A DNA stretch of 64,000 nt, taken from NCBI RefSeq assembly GCF_018476525.1, contig NZ_JAHCST010000004.1, positions 1 through 64,000 of the forward strand, read 5' to 3'. This document shows, piece after piece, positions 12,874-19,570 of this stretch (position 1 is its first letter; each line of letters starts with the position of its first letter). A program made the translations under genes and the position numbers. A model generated the notes under the pieces. The model made no database searches. It worked only from the letters and a program-made list of their open reading frames with translations, and was not told the origin of the DNA. This DNA is from Acrocarpospora catenulata (GTDB lineage Bacteria > Actinomycetota > Actinomycetes > Streptosporangiales > Streptosporangiaceae).

Positions 12874-14565
12874 TTACCAGTCGCCCTTGAAGCTCTGGCC
12901 GATGGTGTGCGCGGCACGGGCGCTGTTCGTGGCTCTGATGCCTATCACTTCGACCTCGATGCCGTACGTCTTCAGTAAGCGGGCGGCGTTGGCGAGGGCG
13001 ACGCGGGCCAGGGGGAACAGGGAATCAGGGGTGAGGAGTGCGCCGGTTTTGAGGTGGATCGCGTAGATGACTTTGTGAGGGCGGAAGGTTGGGGGGACTT
13101 TGCGGCGGCCGTGGGTGGCTGACTGGACGAGGGAGCGGAAGCGGTTGAGGGCCTCGTCGGAGTGGAGGAGGGCTTGGGCGGAGGCGACGCCCTGGTGGAA
13201 GAGGTGGCTGAGGGTGCTGGCGCTGCGGGCGAACTTGACGTGGATGAGGGTGTTGTCGGGGGCGAGGATGTCGCAGGCTTCGAAGCCGTTTCCGGTGTGG
13301 AAGGTGGTGCGGATGAGGTGGCGGTCCAGGCACAGGTAGCCGTCGCGGACGTCTGAGACGTAGGTGTTGTAGGACTGCTCGTCCTGGCCGGGGTGGACGA
13401 GTGGGAGGTCGACCGAGGGACGTGGGACGAAGAGGGGAATGATCTCGGTCAGCTTGGTGTCCAGGTAGCCGGCGTCGATCTCGTACCAGTCGCCGTCGAG
13501 GAGGAAGTAGCGGCGGCCGTCGAGGGTGAGCACGACCTCCAGCCATTTGATGGCCGCCGAGCCGCCGACCTCAAGGGTGCCTTCGGGGTCGCGGTACATC
13601 TTGACTTTGCCCTTGCGCAGGGCCTCCACCCGCCGGCCGGGGCTCTGGAGGCGGGCGCGGAGGCGGATGTGGTCGGCGTCGAACTCGGTGAGGCGCTGGC
13701 ACGCGGTGCCGATTTTCACGTCGAATCGGCAGGCCTGGGCGTACCCGGGGAGGCAGTCGGCGGGCACGGCGCAGACCAGGTCGATCGGGTCGTCGGTGCG
13801 GCCGAGTGCGTCGTCGAGGGCGGCGTCCAGGCGGCGGGTGCGGGCGCTGTCCATGACGGGGCGGATGTGGTCGACGAATTCCAGCGACGGATGCGGCGGG
13901 TCCTCCGCGCAGACGCGGGCGATCTCGCGGATGTCGGCGACGAGGTGGTCGGGCCGTACGCCGAAGCGCATGGTGAGCCCGACGCCTGCCTCCAGGCGGA
14001 CCGGGCGGTCGTCGGCGGCGGAGAAGGTGACCTTCAGTTCCCGTGAGCGGCCGCCCATGCGGCGGATCACTTCGGCCTGCTCCTCGATGCCGAGGGCCCA
14101 GATCGGTAGCCCAGAAGGGACGAGGGTCAGGTCGCTGCGGCCACGGGCGCCGATGCGCCGCCGGGCCACGTCCTGGACGTACTCGGGATCGAGGCGGCGC
14201 ACGGCGAAGCGGATGCCGAACCCGTGGTCCTTGCAGTCGTCGGGGATGAGCCAGTGGCCCTGGCCGTACCCGATCGCGTAGACCTGACCGTCGACGACCA
14301 GCATGAGCAGCCCGAAGGAGCGGCGCTCGTCGTAGGTGACGGCCAGGCCGGTGGTCGTCGAGGCGTCCTCGCACCAACCCGCCAACGGTACGTCGTGGTG
14401 GCCGGCGACCCACAGCGCGGGCGCTCCGGCGACGGTCAACTCCACCGGAGTGGCCCGCAGGGCGGTGAGTCTGTCGAGGTCCAGGGCGGTCAGCATCCCG
14501 TACGGCGTGGGTGGGATGCCGGTGAGCCGGTAGATGGTCAGGTCTCGGGTTCTGGCTCTGGTCAT
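12874..14565 (-). CDS. TIGR04141 / DUF6119-like sporadically distributed protein
   Basis: A 563-residue cytosolic protein. The C-terminal third carries the family pattern: DGYLCLDRHLIRTT, GNGFEACDILAPDNTLIHVK, then FARSASTLSHLFHQGVASAQ, and later KVIYAIHLKTG. This matches the family named TIGR04141 (sporadically distributed protein, DUF6119), whose function is unknown. The conserved I-H-V-K plus S-H-L-F-x-Q-G core looks like a possible active or nucleic-acid-binding site, but that is a guess. It is divergent from the nuclease-helicase operon, with less than 200 bp between starts, so the two may share a control region and belong to one accessory island. Confidence 0.7.
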   Translation of the reverse strand: MTRARTRDLTIYRLTGIPPTPYGMLTALDLDRLTALRATPVELTVAGAPALWVAGHHDVPLAGWCEDASTTTGLAVTYDERRSFGLLMLVVDGQVYAIGYGQGHWLIPDDCKDHGFGIRFAVRRLDPEYVQDVARRRIGARGRSDLTLVPSGLPIWALGIEEQAEVIRRMGGRSRELKVTFSAADDRPVRLEAGVGLTMRFGVRPDHLVADIREIARVCAEDPPHPSLEFVDHIRPVMDSARTRRLDAALDDALGRTDDPIDLVCAVPADCLPGYAQACRFDVKIGTACQRLTEFDADHIRLRARLQSPGRRVEALRKGKVKMYRDPEGTLEVGGSAAIKWLEVVLTLDGRRYFLLDGDWYEIDAGYLDTKLTEIIPLFVPRPSVDLPLVHPGQDEQSYNTYVSDVRDGYLCLDRHLIRTTFHTGNGFEACDILAPDNTLIHVKFARSASTLSHLFHQGVASAQALLHSDEALNRFRSLVQSATHGRRKVPPTFRPHKVIYAIHLKTGALLTPDSLFPLARVALANAARLLKTYGIEVEVIGIRATNSARAAHTIGQSFKGDW

Positions 14566-14750: not shown

Positions 14751-15488
14751 ATGGATGGGCTGGAGGAGCGGATGTTGACGCTGCGGCGTCAGATACGCGC
14801 CGCGGCAGCCGCGAACGACCACGTCCGAGTGCGGTCGCTCCGGGCCGAGCTTCGCGAAGTCGAGCGACGCTGGGAGGAGATCCTTGAGCCGCCGACGCTG
14901 CGCCGGCCCCCGGTGCGGGAACATGTCCACCAAGTCCTGACCCTGCTCGGCACGCCGTCGGCCGCCAAGCTCATCGTCACCGTGGACGAGGCGTTCTTCG
15001 CGGGGCTGCTGAGCAACACCCAACTCACCAGCCTGCGCCGGGACGAGGAGAAGTCGTTTCGGGCCTCCCCCAACGCCCGGCCCTACTACCTGTGCGCGGC
15101 CCTGACCACCGAGCGGCTCTCCCCCGTGCGCGGTCTGCTCGCCGTCAGCACCTGGCCGCTGCCGCAGCGGATGATCGGGCCGCTCAGCCCCCGGGTGGAC
15201 TTTCTCCTCGCCACGATCCGGATCGCCGACCACGTGCGGCGGATCGAGCCTTCGGCCGTCGCGCTGCGCCTGCTCACGCAGTTGGCGCAGAACGTCCCCG
15301 GCGCGACAGAGGGCTACGGGCCGGCCGATCCGGCGGCCGTCGCCGCCGCCGCCCGGGCCGAGCTCGACGTGCACCAGGAGAAGGACCGGCGGCAGCGCGC
15401 GGAGGCCGCCCAGCGCGCGGCCGAGCAGTTGCCGGAGGTCAAGCAGCTGTTCGGCGCGGGCCTGCGAACGGCGGCGAGGAGCGCATGA
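14751..15488 (+). CDS. Coiled-coil hypothetical protein, first gene of nuclease-helicase operon
   Basis: About 245 residues from the ATG at 14751; a GTG at 14745 and an earlier in-frame start at 14688 are alternatives. Residues 1-45 form a charged coiled coil (LEERMLTLRRQIRAAAAAND and RSLRAELREVERRWEEIL). The middle is a compact domain (VHQVLTLLGTPSAAKLIVTV, then FRASPNARPYYLCAALTTER). The C-terminus is again helical and charged (HQEKDRRQRAEAAQRAAEQL). No catalytic motif is visible. Its TGA overlaps the ATG of the first micro-ORF. Family not recognised; a structural or adaptor subunit is a reasonable guess. Confidence 0.7.
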   Translation: MDGLEERMLTLRRQIRAAAAANDHVRVRSLRAELREVERRWEEILEPPTLRRPPVREHVHQVLTLLGTPSAAKLIVTVDEAFFAGLLSNTQLTSLRRDEEKSFRASPNARPYYLCAALTTERLSPVRGLLAVSTWPLPQRMIGPLSPRVDFLLATIRIADHVRRIEPSAVALRLLTQLAQNVPGATEGYGPADPAAVAAAARAELDVHQEKDRRQRAEAAQRAAEQLPEVKQLFGAGLRTAARSA

Positions 15489-15523
15489 GCGGGCTCAACA
15501 CCACGGCGGTGAGGAGCAAATGA
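15485..15523 (+). CDS. Micro-ORF 1 (12 aa)
   Basis: MSGLNTTAVRSK. Its ATG overlaps the TGA of the coiled-coil gene and is preceded by a strong GGCGAGGAGCGC. Its own TGA overlaps the ATG of micro-ORF 2. It is shorter than the others because 27 bases of the unit are missing. Translation is inferred only. Confidence 0.35.
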   Translation: MSGLNTTAVRSK

Positions 15524-15585
15524 GCAAGCTCGACACCCCACGCGAGTCAAGCAGGCTCGACACCACAGCGGTGAAAAGCAAATGA
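15520..15585 (+). CDS. Micro-ORF 2 (21 aa)
   Basis: MSKLDTPRESSRLDTTAVKSK, two related 9-residue halves (SKLDTPRES and SRLDTTAVK). GAGGAG lies just upstream. The TGA overlaps the next ATG. Confidence 0.35.
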   Translation: MSKLDTPRESSRLDTTAVKSK

Positions 15586-15647
15586 GCAAGCTCGACACCC
15601 CACGCGAGTCAAGCAGGCTCGACACCACAGCGGTGAAAAGCAAATGA
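15582..15647 (+). CDS. Micro-ORF 3 (21 aa)
   Basis: Same peptide as micro-ORF 2, from an identical DNA unit read in a different global frame. Its upstream Shine-Dalgarno-like sequence is weaker (GTGAAAAGCAA), so initiation would depend more on coupling. Confidence 0.35.
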   Translation: MSKLDTPRESSRLDTTAVKSK

Positions 15648-15709
15648 GCAGGCTCGACACCCCACGCGGGCCAAGCAGGCTCGACACCACAGCGGCGAGG
15701 AGCGCATGA
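15644..15709 (+). CDS. Micro-ORF 4 (21 aa)
   Basis: A 21-residue variant starting MSRLDTPRGPSRLDTTAARS. The unit is intermediate between the exact repeats and the real gene start. Its TGA overlaps the ATG at 15706, and its 3' end supplies GGCGAGGAGCGC, the strong ribosome binding site of the nuclease gene. Confidence 0.35.
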   Translation: MSRLDTPRGPSRLDTTAARSA

Positions 15710-16842
15710 GCGGGCTCGACACCTGGCGCGGGCCAAACCGGCTCGATGCCCTGCGCGGGCCGAGTAAGCCCGTGGACCACAATGCGCGCAGTATCGCCGC
15801 GCTGGCCGCGAATCCGGCCTGTCAACGCCGCGCCATCCTGGACGCCGCCGGCATCGACAAGGGCAGCACCATCCAGCATCTCGGCTACCCGCACCAGTTC
15901 GGTCAGTCGCCGTTCGCGCTGGCCCGCCAGGAACAGTTCAAGGCGATCGTCAAAGCGCACGGCGGCGCGCACATCCTGCGGCTGCTGCGTGAGCTGCTGC
16001 ATCTCTCCGTCGAGGAGGCCGGGTACCACAACGTCGAGGACGCCGCCGACGACAACGGACGGGCAGTGCGGCACCGCCACACCAGAACGGTGCTGCGGTC
16101 GGCGGCCGAGCAGCCGGAGCACGCGGCGACGCTGTTCGACGACCCCCTGCTCAAGCTCAACGTGGCGGGCTACGACGTCTACCTGGAGCCCGACGTCATC
16201 GCCTTCCAGGTGGGCCGCCAGTTCCACGTGGTGGCGATCAAAACCTTCGCCGTGGTGGACGGGCAGGCCGACACCCCCAAGGTGTCCGCTGCCGCCCGCG
16301 AGGCCGCCGTGTACGTGCACGCGCTGCGCGAGCTGTTCAGTTCGCTCGGCCTCGACCCGGCCCGGGTGGCCCACGACGTGGTCCTGATCTGCCCCAAGGA
16401 CTTCATGAACTTCCCCACGGCGGCCCTCGTCGACGTGCGCCACCCGCTGGAGGTGCTCCGCCGACAGCTGGAGCGCCTGTCCCGGATCGACGACATCCTC
16501 GATGAGCTGCCCCCGGGCCTCAGCCTCGACCTGCGGATGGAGGGAAAGACGCCGACCCGCCCGGCCGCCGAACTCGCCGCAGCCGTCTCGGCCCTTGAGG
16601 CCCGGTACGCTCCCGAGTGCCTGGCCGTCTGCGAAATGGCCTACTTCTGCCGCGCGGAGGCACGGGCGTGCGGCTCGCTGGAGGCCCTCGGCCGGACCGT
16701 CCGCGACGACCTCGGCGGTCTCGAGTCCATCGACACGGCGATCCACCTCATCTCCGGCGACCCCGTCTGCTCACCCGAGCAGGACGCGATCGCCACCCGG
16801 CTCCAGTACCTGCGGCGGCTCCATGACGAGGCGGTCGCATGA
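15706..16842 (+). CDS. Cas4/RecB-like nuclease candidate with Fe-S-type cysteines
   Basis: A 378-residue protein whose N-terminus (MSGLDTWRGPNRLDALRGPS) is the parent of the upstream repeat. Core features resemble RecB/Cas4-type PD-(D/E)XK nucleases: EPDVIAFQVG (Asp163), VVAIKTF (Lys179), then AREAAVYVHALR (Glu199-x3-Tyr203, in place of QxxxY). The acidic residue normally two before the Lys is Ala177, so the site is degenerate or shifted. An N-terminal cysteine (NPACQRR, Cys39) and a C-terminal CLAVCEMAYFC (Cys305, 309, 315) match the 4Fe-4S arrangement of Cas4, AddB and Dna2 with one extra spacer residue. It overlaps the next gene by 4 bases. The assignment is from motif reading only; structure prediction would settle it. 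Confidence 0.55.
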   Translation: MSGLDTWRGPNRLDALRGPSKPVDHNARSIAALAANPACQRRAILDAAGIDKGSTIQHLGYPHQFGQSPFALARQEQFKAIVKAHGGAHILRLLRELLHLSVEEAGYHNVEDAADDNGRAVRHRHTRTVLRSAAEQPEHAATLFDDPLLKLNVAGYDVYLEPDVIAFQVGRQFHVVAIKTFAVVDGQADTPKVSAAAREAAVYVHALRELFSSLGLDPARVAHDVVLICPKDFMNFPTAALVDVRHPLEVLRRQLERLSRIDDILDELPPGLSLDLRMEGKTPTRPAAELAAAVSALEARYAPECLAVCEMAYFCRAEARACGSLEALGRTVRDDLGGLESIDTAIHLISGDPVCSPEQDAIATRLQYLRRLHDEAVA

Positions 16843-18275
16843 GTCTTCTGCGCTCCTACCTGAAGGTGGCGGCGGTGCGCGACGGCCGGGCCCAGCGTGC
16901 CACGACCGTGCGCCACGTCCATCTCGCGGACGCGCCACTGGTGTTCGTCCCGCTGCGGTTGGCCGGGGAGGCGGCGGCCCCGCTCGCCGCGATGGTCGGC
17001 GACGACCGGGCCCACCCGCACCTGCTGGTGGTCACCAATCCCCGGAACCGGGATGAGCGCTTCGCCTTCATGGCCGAGCTCGCCGAGGTGGTGGTTTCTT
17101 ATATCGAGCGATTCACCACCCAGGTGGAAATGTCTGACACCAGGACCCCGTACGAGCGGTGCCTGGACGCGCCGCAGATCCTGGTCCCCAACCCGGCCGG
17201 GGTCGCCTTCACCCGCCTGCTCGGCCGGTCCACCCGGTTCCGCAAGATCGAGGGCCCGCACGCGGTCCCGCCGCGCGTGCCGTTGCTCGGCCGGTGGCTG
17301 ACCTTCCTGCACGATCGCAGCGAGTTCGCCGACTCGGCGATGCTGCTCGCCATGACCGGCCTGCTCAGCGAGCACTGGGTGACCGGTCAAAGCGCCGCCG
17401 AGGACGCGAAGCTTTCCACGCAGCTCGCGTGGATCGATCCACCGCACGGATTGACGGGCGCCGAGGCCGCGGTACAGGCCGAGGATCCGCTGCGGTCGCC
17501 GCCGGCCGGTCCCGACACCGACCCCGGCTTCGACCACGCCGTGTTGCAGCCCCTGATCGGCGGATACGGCGTCACCGCCCAACTCCGGGAGGCGCTGCAC
17601 GAGCAGCTCGAACCCACCTGGAACGACATGTGGCAGGCCGTCGACCTGCTCCGTCCCCTGCCGGAGGGGGCCAGCGTCGCCGCCCGCTGGGAACGCGACC
17701 GCGCCGCGCTGGCCTGGCACCAGAGGTGGCTCACCGACGGAGGTCTGCCGCAGGGCCGCCTGGACAGCGCGGTCGCGGCGGCGCGGCGGCTGGCCACGCT
17801 GGAGGCCGCCCAGCAGAGCTACGAGGCCAATCGCGCCTTCGACGATCCGCTGGTGATGGCCGACTACCGGGCCGCGGGCGTCGCCTTCGCCGGCCGGGTC
17901 ATCGCGGTCGAAGCCGACCGGAAGATCACACCACCGGGTGGGAAGCGGGCGGTCCTGCGGCCGCTCGTCAGCGTACGGACCGACGACTCGGTCCGGCTTT
18001 CCCCGGGGACGCGGCTGTTGTCACCGGCCCGGCCCAAGCAGAAGGCCCATCTGGAGTCCGTCGAGGGCGATGTCGCGGTGCTGCAGCTGAACGGCGGTCT
18101 GGGCAAGGGCACCACCCTGCCGGGCGTGGGGGAGATCATCTGCTACGCCGACCTCGACCCCGAGGGTCACCGCCATCCGTCGCTGCCCGACCTCGCCGAC
18201 ACCCCGTGGACCCACGGCGGGCCCCCCGCCGAGTACGTGCCGACCGACGAGGACGCGCAGGAGGTCTGGTCGTGA
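16839..18275 (+). CDS. Hypothetical protein, third gene of nuclease-helicase operon
   Basis: A 478-residue protein with no signal peptide or membrane helix. Residues 1-150 look like an alpha/beta domain (LVFVPLRLAGEAAAPLAAMV, HPHLLVVTNPRN, APQILVPNPAGVAF). The middle is helical and rich in Trp, Arg and Ala. The last 130 residues look like a small beta-barrel: AGVAFAGRVIAVEADRKI, RPLVSVRTDD, LSPGTRLLSP, VAVLQLNGG. Such a fold could bind nucleic acid or the partner helicase, but this is inference. It starts within an ATGA overlap and ends in a GTGA overlap with the helicase, so fixed stoichiometry is likely. Family not recognised. Confidence 0.65.
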   Translation: MSLLRSYLKVAAVRDGRAQRATTVRHVHLADAPLVFVPLRLAGEAAAPLAAMVGDDRAHPHLLVVTNPRNRDERFAFMAELAEVVVSYIERFTTQVEMSDTRTPYERCLDAPQILVPNPAGVAFTRLLGRSTRFRKIEGPHAVPPRVPLLGRWLTFLHDRSEFADSAMLLAMTGLLSEHWVTGQSAAEDAKLSTQLAWIDPPHGLTGAEAAVQAEDPLRSPPAGPDTDPGFDHAVLQPLIGGYGVTAQLREALHEQLEPTWNDMWQAVDLLRPLPEGASVAARWERDRAALAWHQRWLTDGGLPQGRLDSAVAAARRLATLEAAQQSYEANRAFDDPLVMADYRAAGVAFAGRVIAVEADRKITPPGGKRAVLRPLVSVRTDDSVRLSPGTRLLSPARPKQKAHLESVEGDVAVLQLNGGLGKGTTLPGVGEIICYADLDPEGHRHPSLPDLADTPWTHGGPPAEYVPTDEDAQEVWS

Positions 18276-19570
18276 CACCGCAGCAGCAGGCGGGGGCCGC
18301 CACCGCCGGCATCCTCGCCGACTACTCCAGCGGAAGCCACCGCGGCCTGGTCGTCGACTCCCCGCCGGGGGCGGGCAAGACCACCCTGGTCGCCGCCACC
18401 ACCACGGAGCTCGCGCGGGCCGGGGAACGGCTGATGATCGTCGCCCAGACCAACGAGCAGGTCGACGACCTCGTCGACAAGCTGGCCGGCAAGTCCCCCG
18501 GGCTGGCCATCGGCCGCCTGCACGCCGAAGGCTTCCAGCCGCCGCCCCGCGTCACCCGCCACGCCAACGTGATCGCGCACAACAAGATCGAGACCGTCGA
18601 GCAGTGCCAGGTCGTCGTGGCCACCGCCGACAAGTGGGCGTACGTCAAGGGACGCACCTGGGAGTGGGCGATCGTGGACGAGGCCTACCAGATGCGCTCG
18701 GACAAGCTGCTCGCCGTGGCGCCGCTGTTCGCCGACGGGCACGCCCTGTTCGTCGGCGACCCCGGCCAGCTCGACCCGTTCTCCGTGATCGACAGCGAAC
18801 GGTGGACCGGGCTCGCCTGGGATCCGCTGCAGAGCGCCGTCGCGGTCACCCAGCGCACCAACGACCTCAAGGTGCACCAGCTGCCCGTCTCCTGGCGCCT
18901 GCCCGCCACCGCCGCTCCGATCGTCTCGCGCGCCTTCTACCCGGCGGGTGGCTTCGCCGCCGGCACGGGCGACGGCGATCGCCGGCTGGAATTCGCCGTC
19001 AGCGGCCTGAACAGCCCGTGGGACGCCACCCTCGAACACGCGGCGGCCACCGGCTGGGCGCTGCACGAGCTGCCCAACCGCTACACCGTGCGCACCGACC
19101 CGGACGTGGCCGAGGCGTGCGCCGGCCTCGCCCGCCGCGTGGTCGAACGCGGCACCCTCGCCCACGACGAGCAGGGCTCGCACCGCGTCGACCCGCACCG
19201 CGTCGCCGTCGGCTGCGCCCACAACGACCAGGTCACCGCCGTCCGCGCGGCCGGCGTGCCCGAGGGCGTCACGGTGGACACCGCCAACCGGCTCCAAGGC
19301 CGTGAGTACGACGTCACCATCGTCTGGCACCCGCTCTCCGGCCGCCGCGACGCCACCGCCTTCCACCTGGAATCCGGGCGCCTGTGCGTGCTGACCTCCC
19401 GCCACCGGCACGCCTGCGTCGTGGTCGCCCGCGCCGGCATCGCCGACCTGCTCGACCAGCATCCGCCGAGCTCCCGCGTCCAGCTCAACGTCCCGATCAA
19501 GTTTCCGGACGGCTGGGCGGCCAACCACGCGGTCCTCGCCCATCTCGCCGAACACCGCGTCCGCGTCTGA
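18272..19570 (+). CDS. Superfamily 1 helicase / AAA-type ATPase, Upf1-Dna2-like
   Basis: A 432-residue helicase core. Motif I is PPGAGKTT (residues 31-38), motif II IVDEAY (134-139), motif III VGDPGQLD (161-168), a motif IV-like QLPVSWRLP (203-211), motif V TVDTANRLQGREYDVTIV (334-350) and a motif VI region CVLTSRHRHACVVVARAG (372-389). GDPxQL together with QGxExD points to the SF1B Upf1/Dna2 branch. It is short for a free-standing helicase, so it probably acts in a complex with the three upstream products. The GTG start overlaps the preceding stop; the frame is open further upstream only as a shadow of gene 3. Confidence 0.85.
   Translation: MTPQQQAGAATAGILADYSSGSHRGLVVDSPPGAGKTTLVAATTTELARAGERLMIVAQTNEQVDDLVDKLAGKSPGLAIGRLHAEGFQPPPRVTRHANVIAHNKIETVEQCQVVVATADKWAYVKGRTWEWAIVDEAYQMRSDKLLAVAPLFADGHALFVGDPGQLDPFSVIDSERWTGLAWDPLQSAVAVTQRTNDLKVHQLPVSWRLPATAAPIVSRAFYPAGGFAAGTGDGDRRLEFAVSGLNSPWDATLEHAAATGWALHELPNRYTVRTDPDVAEACAGLARRVVERGTLAHDEQGSHRVDPHRVAVGCAHNDQVTAVRAAGVPEGVTVDTANRLQGREYDVTIVWHPLSGRRDATAFHLESGRLCVLTSRHRHACVVVARAGIADLLDQHPPSSRVQLNVPIKFPDGWAANHAVLAHLAEHRVRV

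What the first reader, a model, noticed from the sequence alone, without database searches (positions are those of the whole stretch)
14751..19570. Four-gene operon resembling a split Dna2: Cas4/RecB-like nuclease plus SF1 helicase with two unknown partners
Seen: four large genes joined by 4-base overlaps or by the micro-ORF chain. The helicase has clear SF1B motifs (GAGKTT, DEAY, GDPGQL, QGREYD). The second large gene has D...AxK...ExxxY and Cys39 plus CLAVCEMAYFC, like the Fe-S nucleases of Dna2, AddB and Cas4. Known: Dna2 combines exactly such a nuclease with an SF1B helicase. Inference: the products form one DNA-processing machine, possibly an antiphage or plasmid-control system, since no housekeeping gene of this layout is known to me and the neighbourhood is accessory (TIGR04141-like gene, unusual repeat).
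Basis: partly seen in the sequence, partly recalled or inferred. Interest (0 to 1): 0.85.

Follow-up and report, generated by a model that had tools for sequence, protein, structure and literature searches.

The report
Three-part Dna2-like DNA-cutting motor
A set of tightly coupled genes in many large-genome soil actinobacteria appears to encode, in separate pieces, the same kind of DNA unwinding-and-cutting machine that our own cells carry as one protein (Dna2), probably to process broken or stalled DNA.

Summary
Observation confirmed. Window 14751-19570 holds four co-directional genes: P0002 (245 aa), P0003 (378), P0004 (478), P0001 (432), linked by ATGA/GTGA overlaps and a four-micro-ORF relay. 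P0003 is a PD-(D/E)XK nuclease with four cysteines (136/136 homologues) spaced as in Fe-S nucleases; its AlphaFold model (pLDDT 91) weakly matches MGME1, RecE, Cas4, AddB. P0001 is a Upf1/Dna2-type SF1B helicase. P0004 has no family, but Dna2 is its top (weak) fold match, so gene order mirrors Dna2's domain order. A P0004-like protein also precedes a P0001-like helicase on Rhodococcus and Mycolicibacterium plasmids. The trio is together in 112 of 113 loci, P0002 in 95. The helicase is in 114 of 121 genomes of a genus inferred to be Streptomyces; loci are mostly fixed in three genera. SbcCD adjoins in 9 of 115 loci, Wadjet on two plasmids. Window neighbours are ordinary. Most likely a three-subunit Dna2-like end-processing complex for genome maintenance, sometimes recruited to conflict. 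The window's nuclease belongs to a clade whose catalytic acid seems to have moved from ExK to the QxxxY helix. I found no description in the papers searched.

The parts
14751..15488 (+). P0002, 245 aa, partner: N-terminal coiled-coil-like stretch (by eye), then a conserved core (LRRDEE...RPYYLC); no family
   Evidence: no Pfam/NCBIfam/PADLOC hit (10-12); of 14 members scanned, one weak winged-helix hit at E 0.061 (76); found by tblastn in 95 of 113 loci, not found in 15 trio loci including the six g70 core loci
15485..15709 (+). four micro-ORFs (12, 21, 21, 21 aa) joined by ATGA overlaps, linking the stop of P0002 to the start of P0003
   Evidence: read by hand; in relatives P0002 and P0003 mostly overlap directly by 4 bases (72 of 120 loci)
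15488..15723 (+). 62-bp tandem array, 3.8 copies, repeating the translation start region of P0003
15706..16842 (+). P0003, 378 aa, PD-(D/E)XK nuclease with four conserved Cys (39, 305, 309, 315); active-site residues D163, A177-I-K179, E199xxxY203
   Evidence: alignments 24, 37, 83; residue counts 35, 110; AlphaFold pLDDT 91.2 (49); Foldseek MGME1/RecE/Cas4/AddB, E 0.0035 at best; PF12705 weakly in 7 of 52 members, not in P0003 itself
16839..18275 (+). P0004, 478 aa, no sequence family; C-terminal helices (246-346) and strands (349-437), proposed stalk and barrel subunit of the helicase
   Evidence: AlphaFold pLDDT 89.8 (54); Foldseek rank 1 Dna2 5ean, weak; conserved TPWTHGGPP near the C-terminus; no profile hit in the PDB; profile match to a 395-aa protein upstream of a P0001-like helicase on plasmids
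18272..19570 (+). P0001, 432 aa, Upf1/Dna2-type SF1B helicase
   Evidence: PF13086, PF13604, PF13245; PDB hits Dna2 and IGHMBP2/SMUBP-2; helicase motifs conserved in A3 (26)
12874..14565 (-). P0005, DUF6119/TIGR04141 protein, divergent neighbour; possible partner only in this clade
   Evidence: same place in extra copies of three genomes of the Nonomuraea genus code (two with full-length genes seen), and 266 aa in Herbidospora

Best explanation
The operon encodes a multi-subunit DNA helicase-nuclease that works like Dna2. P0001 (SF1B, by family 5'-to-3') moves on single-stranded DNA; P0004 is its constant partner and supplies the stalk and barrel that in Dna2 sit between nuclease and helicase; P0003, a nuclease with an Fe-S cluster, cuts the strand fed through it; P0002, where present, is a DNA-binding or loading partner. 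Its usual job is genome maintenance: processing double-strand-break ends, flaps or stalled forks, at times together with SbcCD (Mre11-Rad50). Extra mobile copies may be used in plasmid or phage conflict. Shown: gene set, order, coupling, motifs, predicted folds, distribution, repeated SbcCD adjacency, a P0004-like/P0001-like pair elsewhere. Inferred: the complex, the cluster, the polarity, any activity, and the biological role.
For: Nuclease fold and motifs; helicase family with Dna2 and IGHMBP2 as nearest solved relatives; P0004's best fold match is Dna2, with spliceosome chains that I take to be Aquarius (recalled as Upf1-like) also high; Dna2 order nuclease - barrel/stalk - helicase (PMC4716839, passages) equals the gene order; trio in 112 of 113 loci and coupled starts; the same trio in distant Actinomycetota, P0004 homologous over 422 columns; on four plasmids looked at, of 47 with a helicase relative, a protein with a profile match to P0004 precedes the helicase (control with P0003 negative); helicase in 114 of 121 genomes of the genus inferred to be Streptomyces, shared loci in three genera; SbcCD beside it in 9 of 115 loci in two arrangements, in one 30 nt downstream of the helicase.
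Against: Foldseek values are weak (P0003 best E 0.0035; P0004-Dna2 E 0.0037, probability 0.41, TM 0.18), give no aligned range, and Dna2 is not among the top 50 for P0003. No profile link of P0003 or P0004 to Dna2 in the PDB (the two significant hits in 64 are to designed repeat proteins, judged compositional). Active-site residues vary: D163 is lost in 11 of 136, E177 is absent in 24 of 136 (19 of these carry E199), so some members may not cut DNA. On plasmids the helicase pair goes with MoxR-like and VWA genes instead of a recognised P0003, so the helicase module is not tied to the nuclease. One locus (L167) lacks an adjacent helicase; in L172 the P0004-like reading frame is in two ORFs. SbcCD is not adjacent in most loci. 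Two distant loci lie beside a UvrD-Cas4-type or methyltransferase gene, a setting called defence in PMC5704561.
Confidence: 0.6

Rival explanations
1. A defence or plasmid-conflict system: the complex degrades phage or plasmid DNA, with P0002 (or DUF6119, SbcCD) as sensor or partner.
For: Quartet beside SbcCD and Wadjet genes on two Streptomyces plasmids; extra copies near contig ends in two single-contig genomes; helicase relatives on 47 plasmid records, 26 of them Rhodococcus; two distant trios beside a UvrD-Cas4-type fusion (L174) or a DNA methyltransferase and UvrD-like ORFs (L172), like the type III restriction-modification loci of PMC5704561 (section 8, 104); DUF6119 neighbour.
Against: Present in nearly all sampled genomes of one genus and at shared loci in three genera; adjacent genes not clearly richer in PADLOC hits; no relative found in viral contigs; no PADLOC model covers the set.
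Confidence: 0.25
2. The nuclease subunit is largely structural or regulatory (a dead or weak nuclease) and the set is a helicase/translocase, for example clearing proteins or RNA from DNA.
For: D163 lost in 11 of 136 and E177 absent in 24 of 136; [quoted passage not shown] on plasmids the helicase pair occurs with MoxR-like and VWA genes and no recognised P0003.
Against: 102 of 136 keep D-E-K-Q-Y, including 19 of the 21 f3/g70 rows; distant trios keep D, ExK, Q and Y; the 19-row clade that lost E177 has E199 in every row.
Confidence: 0.15

Closest known systems
Dna2 (eukaryotic nuclease-helicase)
   Same: PD-(D/E)XK nuclease with Fe-S-type cysteines, then stalk/barrel, then Upf1-like SF1B helicase, in the same order; among the nearest solved relatives of the helicase; best fold match of P0004 (60)
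   Different: three separate polypeptides; CX3CX5C against CX2CX5C (recalled for Dna2); no sequence link of P0003 or P0004 to Dna2; extra N-terminal half of P0004 and the extra subunit P0002
AddAB / AdnAB
   Same: bacterial helicase-nucleases for break ends; AddB shares the Fe-S nuclease type with Dna2 (77)
   Different: those helicases are UvrD/SF1A type (recalled); here a Upf1-type SF1B helicase and split subunits; Streptomyces already has AdnAB as main activity (PMC5869714, passage)
Cas4 and Cas4-like (PF12705) pairings with UvrD or YprA helicases
   Same: Cas4-like nuclease coupled to a helicase; some lie beside type III restriction-modification (PMC5704561, section 8, 104)
   Different: helicase is SF1B Upf1-type; P0004 is extra; P0003 itself has no Pfam hit and only 7 of 52 members touch PF12705 weakly
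MoxR-like/VWA-like/395-aa/helicase gene set of Rhodococcus and Mycolicibacterium plasmids
   Same: P0001-like helicase (about 34% identity to the g70 homologue) preceded by a protein with a profile match to P0004
   Different: no recognised P0003; MoxR-like ATPase and DUF2201 metallopeptidase/VWA genes instead; four of 47 records looked at
PLuB helicase NF040671, MkoA (PADLOC), TM0106/TIGR03491
   Same: distant similarity in the helicase for PLuB (24-389) and, over short stretches, MkoA; the TM0106 nuclease-helicase arrangement is recalled
   Different: no similarity of the other three proteins; TIGR03491 not found in the window's genome

Membership tests
Dna2 | nuclease and helicase on one polypeptide | tested here: not met
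   separate genes in the window and in the loci examined; no fused form was seen, though none was searched for specially
Dna2 | PD-(D/E)XK nuclease with N-terminal Cys plus C-terminal Cys triplet | tested here: met
   136 of 136; spacing CX3CX5C; the cluster itself is not testable here
Dna2 | Upf1-like SF1B helicase | tested here: met
Dna2 | stalk and beta barrel between nuclease and helicase | tested here: inconclusive
   Foldseek rank 1 is Dna2 but weak and without aligned range; secondary structure fits
Dna2 | detectable sequence relationship of the nuclease to Dna2 nucleases | tested here: not met
Cas4 (PF01930 / CRISPR adaptation) | match to the Cas4 family model, neighbouring cas genes | tested here: not met
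   no such Pfam hit for P0003 or its 52 members; ten window neighbours scanned by Pfam show no cas gene; cas genes were not sought by name elsewhere
PD-(D/E)XK superfamily, RecB/Cas4/AddB group | core fold with D, (D/E)xK and QxxxY | tested here: met
   met for the family; in the window itself the ExK acid is A177 and the helix Q is E199
known anti-phage systems (PADLOC-DB 2.0.0) | match to the models of a system over most of its proteins | tested here: not met
   only the helicase hits, best stretches short
TM0106/TIGR03491 | family model | tested here: not met
   no P0003 hit; none in own genome

The most novel reading that the evidence does not exclude
Large-genome Actinomycetota carry an undescribed class of DNA end-processing machine beside RecBCD, AddAB and AdnAB: a three-subunit bacterial Dna2 (Fe-S nuclease, stalk/barrel subunit, SF1B motor), with an optional fourth subunit and SbcCD as upstream partner, i.e. 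a bacterial counterpart of Mre11-Rad50 plus Dna2 resection. Its motor and stalk/barrel pair is a module that plasmids have joined to a MoxR-VWA set instead. In one clade, the window's, the nuclease active site has been rewired by moving the catalytic carboxylate from the ExK strand to the QxxxY helix, a change known in restriction enzymes.
Probability: 0.4. Interest if true: 0.82.

Novelty: new variant of a known kind. Interest (0 to 1): 0.64.

Why it matters
If right, many large-genome actinomycetes, probably including most streptomycetes, have a second, overlooked helicase-nuclease beside AdnAB, built like eukaryotic Dna2 but from separate parts. That would show how a Dna2 architecture can arise by joining or splitting subunits, make a bacterial Mre11-Rad50/Dna2 type of resection testable in Streptomyces, and bear on the instability of linear actinomycete chromosomes. 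The active-site move offers a natural series (E177/Q199, A/T/V177/E199, neither) for testing catalytic plasticity in this nuclease group.

Tried and rejected
Considered and set aside: (1) a defence system as the main role; see rival 1. (2) A match to a named family for P0002, P0003 or P0004: none in Pfam, NCBIfam or PADLOC, apart from a weak FliX hit of P0003 (E 0.045) judged chance. (3) PDB profile hits of P0003 to designed repeat proteins: two at significant E-values (3.8e-11, 1.4e-7), built from many weak stretches, judged compositional. (4) The covariation of residues 177 and 199 as statistical evidence: the table is striking (Fisher p 6e-19 ignores the tree), but E199 changed once on the tree (quick method, SH-aLRT only; independent pairs gave no support), so it is one event, not many. 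(5) IGHMBP2-type relatives for a profile test of the P0004 barrel: only two partial matches in 149 genomes, so that test was not made. (6) DUF6119 as a general part of the system: it was found adjoining only in the window, extra copies of the Nonomuraea genus code and, shortened, Herbidospora. (7) Viral spread: none of 83 pattern matches in viral contigs encodes a relative. (8) A named record to confirm that genus g70 is Streptomyces: not obtained; it stays an inference from genus and genome size. (9) The distant nuclease on plasmids: no match.

Rows dropped or chosen: residue counts used 136 of 160 P0003 rows (identical sequences and those with E above 1e-30 left out; the four distant rows are thus not in it). 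The six g70 core loci were picked after seeing that they share neighbours: they are one locus from each of the six g70 genomes fetched with flanks, the other two of the eight loci (L163, L168) being second copies elsewhere. Of 108 'far' neighbours listed, 12 short or end-cut ones were left out by hand, so 96 were scanned; all 126 'near' ones were. PADLOC tables show only the first 25 of 124 and of 85 families. Five of the 115 loci of 12 kb or more repeat a genome (wrongly named a sixth); the census did not remove repeats and set aside 6 loci with short flanks. Four of 47 plasmid records were looked at.
Full report
What is in the sequence. Four ORFs on the + strand fill 14751-19570. P0003 and P0004 overlap by ATGA (16839-16842), P0004 and P0001 by GTGA (18272-18275). 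P0002 ends at 15488; its stop overlaps a micro-ORF start, and four micro-ORFs of 12, 21, 21 and 21 aa, each joined to the next by ATGA, lead to the start of P0003 at 15706 (read by hand). They lie in a 62-bp tandem array of 3.8 copies that repeats the start region of P0003. In relatives P0002 and P0003 mostly overlap directly: gap -4 in 72 of 120 loci; P0003/P0004 gap -4 in 88 of 156; P0004/P0001 gap -4 in 50 of 101 (some genomes counted twice). The window belongs to a 10.3-Mb genome. Two genomes of its genus code have contigs of the same number and length as Acrocarpospora corrugata and A. macrocephala records, so the host is probably an Acrocarpospora; this is an inference.

P0003 is a nuclease. 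The window protein has no Pfam hit; 7 of 52 diverse members touch PF12705, PDDEXK_1, best E 0.0025. Motifs in A1: LEPD163, (E/A/T/V/L/Q)177-x-K179, Q/E/L199-x3-Y203, Cys39 and C305-x3-C309-x5-C315. AlphaFold gave pLDDT 91.2, pTM 0.88. Foldseek's best PDB matches include MGME1, RecE, Cas4 SSO0001, AddB, a bunyaviral endonuclease, ACE1, Cas4 of type I-C, lambda exonuclease, AdnAB and Exo5, at E 0.0035 to about 0.4; none passes 0.001, and Dna2 is not in the top 50. All four cysteines are kept in 136 of 136 distinct sequences. In nine aligned rows with four distant homologues (23-25% identity to P0003) D163, K179, Y203 and the four Cys are invariant, and the four distant rows show EIK and Q. That pattern matches Fe-S nucleases of the Dna2/AddB type; the cluster itself is an inference.

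Active-site change. Of 136 sequences, 112 have E177 with Q or L199; 19 have A, T or V177 with E199; 5 have neither; none has both. The 19 rows, which include the window, form one clade (SH-aLRT 99, quick tree), so this is a single switch, after which 177 varied and E199 stayed in all 19. It resembles the PD-XXK-E arrangement of Cfr10I, NgoMIV and others described in PMC551604 (passages). D163 is lost in 11 of 136, all in the 31-row clade that also holds the 19, one of them (L017) in the E199 clade itself.

P0001 is a helicase: PF13086 E 6.9e-12, PF13604 E 2.3e-9; best PDB relatives Dna2 for the single sequence (E 1.6e-8), SMUBP-2/IGHMBP2 and Dna2 for the profile. Walker B, motif III and QGRE are invariant and Walker A nearly so in 21 rows (some rows start late). 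No other gene of this family was found in the own genome at 1e-10.

P0004 is the key unknown. No sequence family and no PDB profile hit up to E 10. AlphaFold pLDDT 89.8: after an N-terminal part come helices 246-271, 280-299, 311-335, 337-346 and strands between 349 and 437. Foldseek rank 1 of 350,542 chains is Dna2 5ean (E 0.0037, probability 0.41, TM 0.18); ranks 3, 14 and 29 are spliceosome chains that I take to be Aquarius, recalled as Upf1-like; rank 18 is Dna2 again; many other matches are small ATP-synthase pieces. The Dna2 paper (PMC4716839, passages only) describes a nuclease domain, then a barrel on a stalk of two long helices, then helicase domains 1A and 2A. Gene order P0003, P0004, P0001 is the same. 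The scores are weak, so this is a supported inference.

A second setting for the helicase pair. tblastn of the g70 helicase against plasmids found 47 records: Rhodococcus 26, Mycobacterium 7, Mycolicibacterium 4, Streptomyces 2, others. Outside Nonomuraea and Streptomyces the listed ones have about 34-36% identity. In four looked at (two Rhodococcus, two Mycolicibacterium) the helicase gene is preceded by an AAA/MoxR-like ATPase, a VWA-like gene, a small gene and a protein of about 395 aa. The last has no Pfam family but matches the P0004 profile over 259 columns, positions 103-454, E 1.3e-5, probability 81; against the P0003 profile there is nothing (probability 0.1). As a yardstick, the P0004-like proteins of distant trios match at E 1.3e-17 over 422 columns. 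These E-values are for single comparisons. So a P0004-like protein seems to be the constant partner of this helicase, and the nuclease one of its options. P0003 itself was found on three plasmid records, a distant P0003 on none.

P0002 has no family; of 14 members scanned one has a weak winged-helix hit (E 0.061). The N-terminus looks like a coiled coil (by eye).

Conservation. P0003 occurs in 171 of 297 genomes of the window's family and 28 of 396 of a phylum sample, four of these distant. All 15 genomes with P0004 in a second, not identical phylum sample (15 of 396) are among those with P0003; the reverse was not checked. Of 113 loci with enough flank, 95 have the quartet, 15 the trio without P0002, 2 are distant trios whose P0004 is too divergent for BLAST but aligns at 20-21%, and 1 (L167) has P0003-P0004 followed by a gene I read as GGDEF-EAL. 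Distant L175 also has the trio; in distant L172 the P0004-like frame is in two ORFs. In genus g70, inferred to be Streptomyces from its size and genome sizes (not confirmed by a named record), the helicase is in 114 of 121 genomes; 10 of these have more than one copy, and in two single-contig genomes extra copies lie close to the ends (G739 at both, G779 at 8 kb).

Context. Eight g70 loci from six genomes were fetched with flanks; one from each genome shares its neighbours (c33, c49, c50, c51, c52, c53 in 6 of 6; chosen after seeing this), the other two are second copies. 24 Actinomadura loci share c5 (24 of 24) and c8 (23 of 24); 18 Nonomuraea loci share c11 and c16 (14 of 18). Neighbours in one g70 locus include PAP2, histidine phosphatase and a Prim-Pol domain protein. 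On those plasmids Wadjet genes follow on the same strand. The distant trio of L174 lies beside a UvrD-Cas4-type fusion (PF00580, PF12705), that of L172 near a DNA methyltransferase (PF01555) and UvrD-like and nuclease-like ORFs, and those of L173 and L175 beside RNase_H_2 proteins (PF13482), which fits TM0106-like genes (recalled). As a test of a defence setting, 126 adjacent genes of 32 loci and 96 more distant genes of the same loci were scanned with PADLOC at 1e-8 (first 25 families of each shown). Adjacent: mad3 5, LmuB 5, MkoA 3 and 3, PD-T4-6, mad6 and a kinase model 2 each; LmuB may be the SbcC neighbours (not checked). Distant: mad6, mad3, mad2 and AriA 2 each, BrxC, type IV and III restriction, type I methyltransferase, JetA and PD-T4-6 once each among others. 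Neither set is clearly richer, and the test is weak. The window's neighbours are ordinary.

Reading. The parts fit a Dna2-like helicase-nuclease in three subunits. Wide presence and shared loci favour genome maintenance; repeated SbcCD adjacency suggests joint processing of DNA ends; plasmid and chromosome-end copies, and copies beside Wadjet or UvrD-Cas4, leave room for use in conflict. Streptomyces has AdnAB as its main helicase-nuclease (PMC5869714, passage), so this would be an additional machine.

Literature. Searches were aimed at such a system, 41 and 42 at two relatives; no listing showed a paper on this trio, but I read only titles and abstract starts there. The Cas4 paper PMC5704561 (section 8 and passages) describes Cas4-like nucleases with UvrD and YprA helicases but no such set in the parts I read. 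The library lacks most subscription papers, so absence here is weak evidence.

Noticed in passing
window 15485-15723: A 62-bp tandem array repeats the start region of the nuclease gene and makes a relay of four micro-ORFs each coupled by ATGA; relatives mostly have one direct overlap. Copy-number change would keep the coupling.
   Followed up: partly
window 12874-14565, minus strand: DUF6119/TIGR04141 gene divergent from the operon; at the same place in extra copies of the Nonomuraea genus code, and shortened to 266 aa in Herbidospora. By eye its C-terminal part has a restriction-nuclease-like motif (recalled).
   Followed up: partly
L204-L207 (plasmids of Rhodococcus and Mycolicibacterium): Five-gene set MoxR-like ATPase, DUF2201/VWA protein, small gene, 395-aa P0004-like protein, P0001-like helicase; helicase relatives occur on 47 plasmid records, some mobilizable.
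   Followed up: partly
L182 (274558-300239 of NZ_CP108489.1, reversed) and L183 (NZ_CP027023.1): Streptomyces plasmid segments with SbcCD, the quartet and Wadjet genes side by side near a record end; in L183 the SbcCD genes are in pieces.
   Followed up: partly
L167 (G488:C1): Only exception to the trio in the census: P0003-P0004 without adjacent helicase, followed by a gene read as GGDEF-EAL.
   Followed up: no
L161 12607-13194 and other g70 core loci: A small Prim-Pol domain protein (Pfam hit seen in L161 only) lies downstream of the g70 trio; its cluster c79 is in 4 of 6 loci, after an unknown 122-aa protein (c52, 6 of 6).
   Followed up: no
L172 and L174: Distant trios near a DNA methyltransferase (L172) or a UvrD-Cas4-type fusion (L174); in L172 the P0004-like frame is in two ORFs and a UvrD-like and a nuclease-like ORF lie next to each other on the other strand.
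   Followed up: partly
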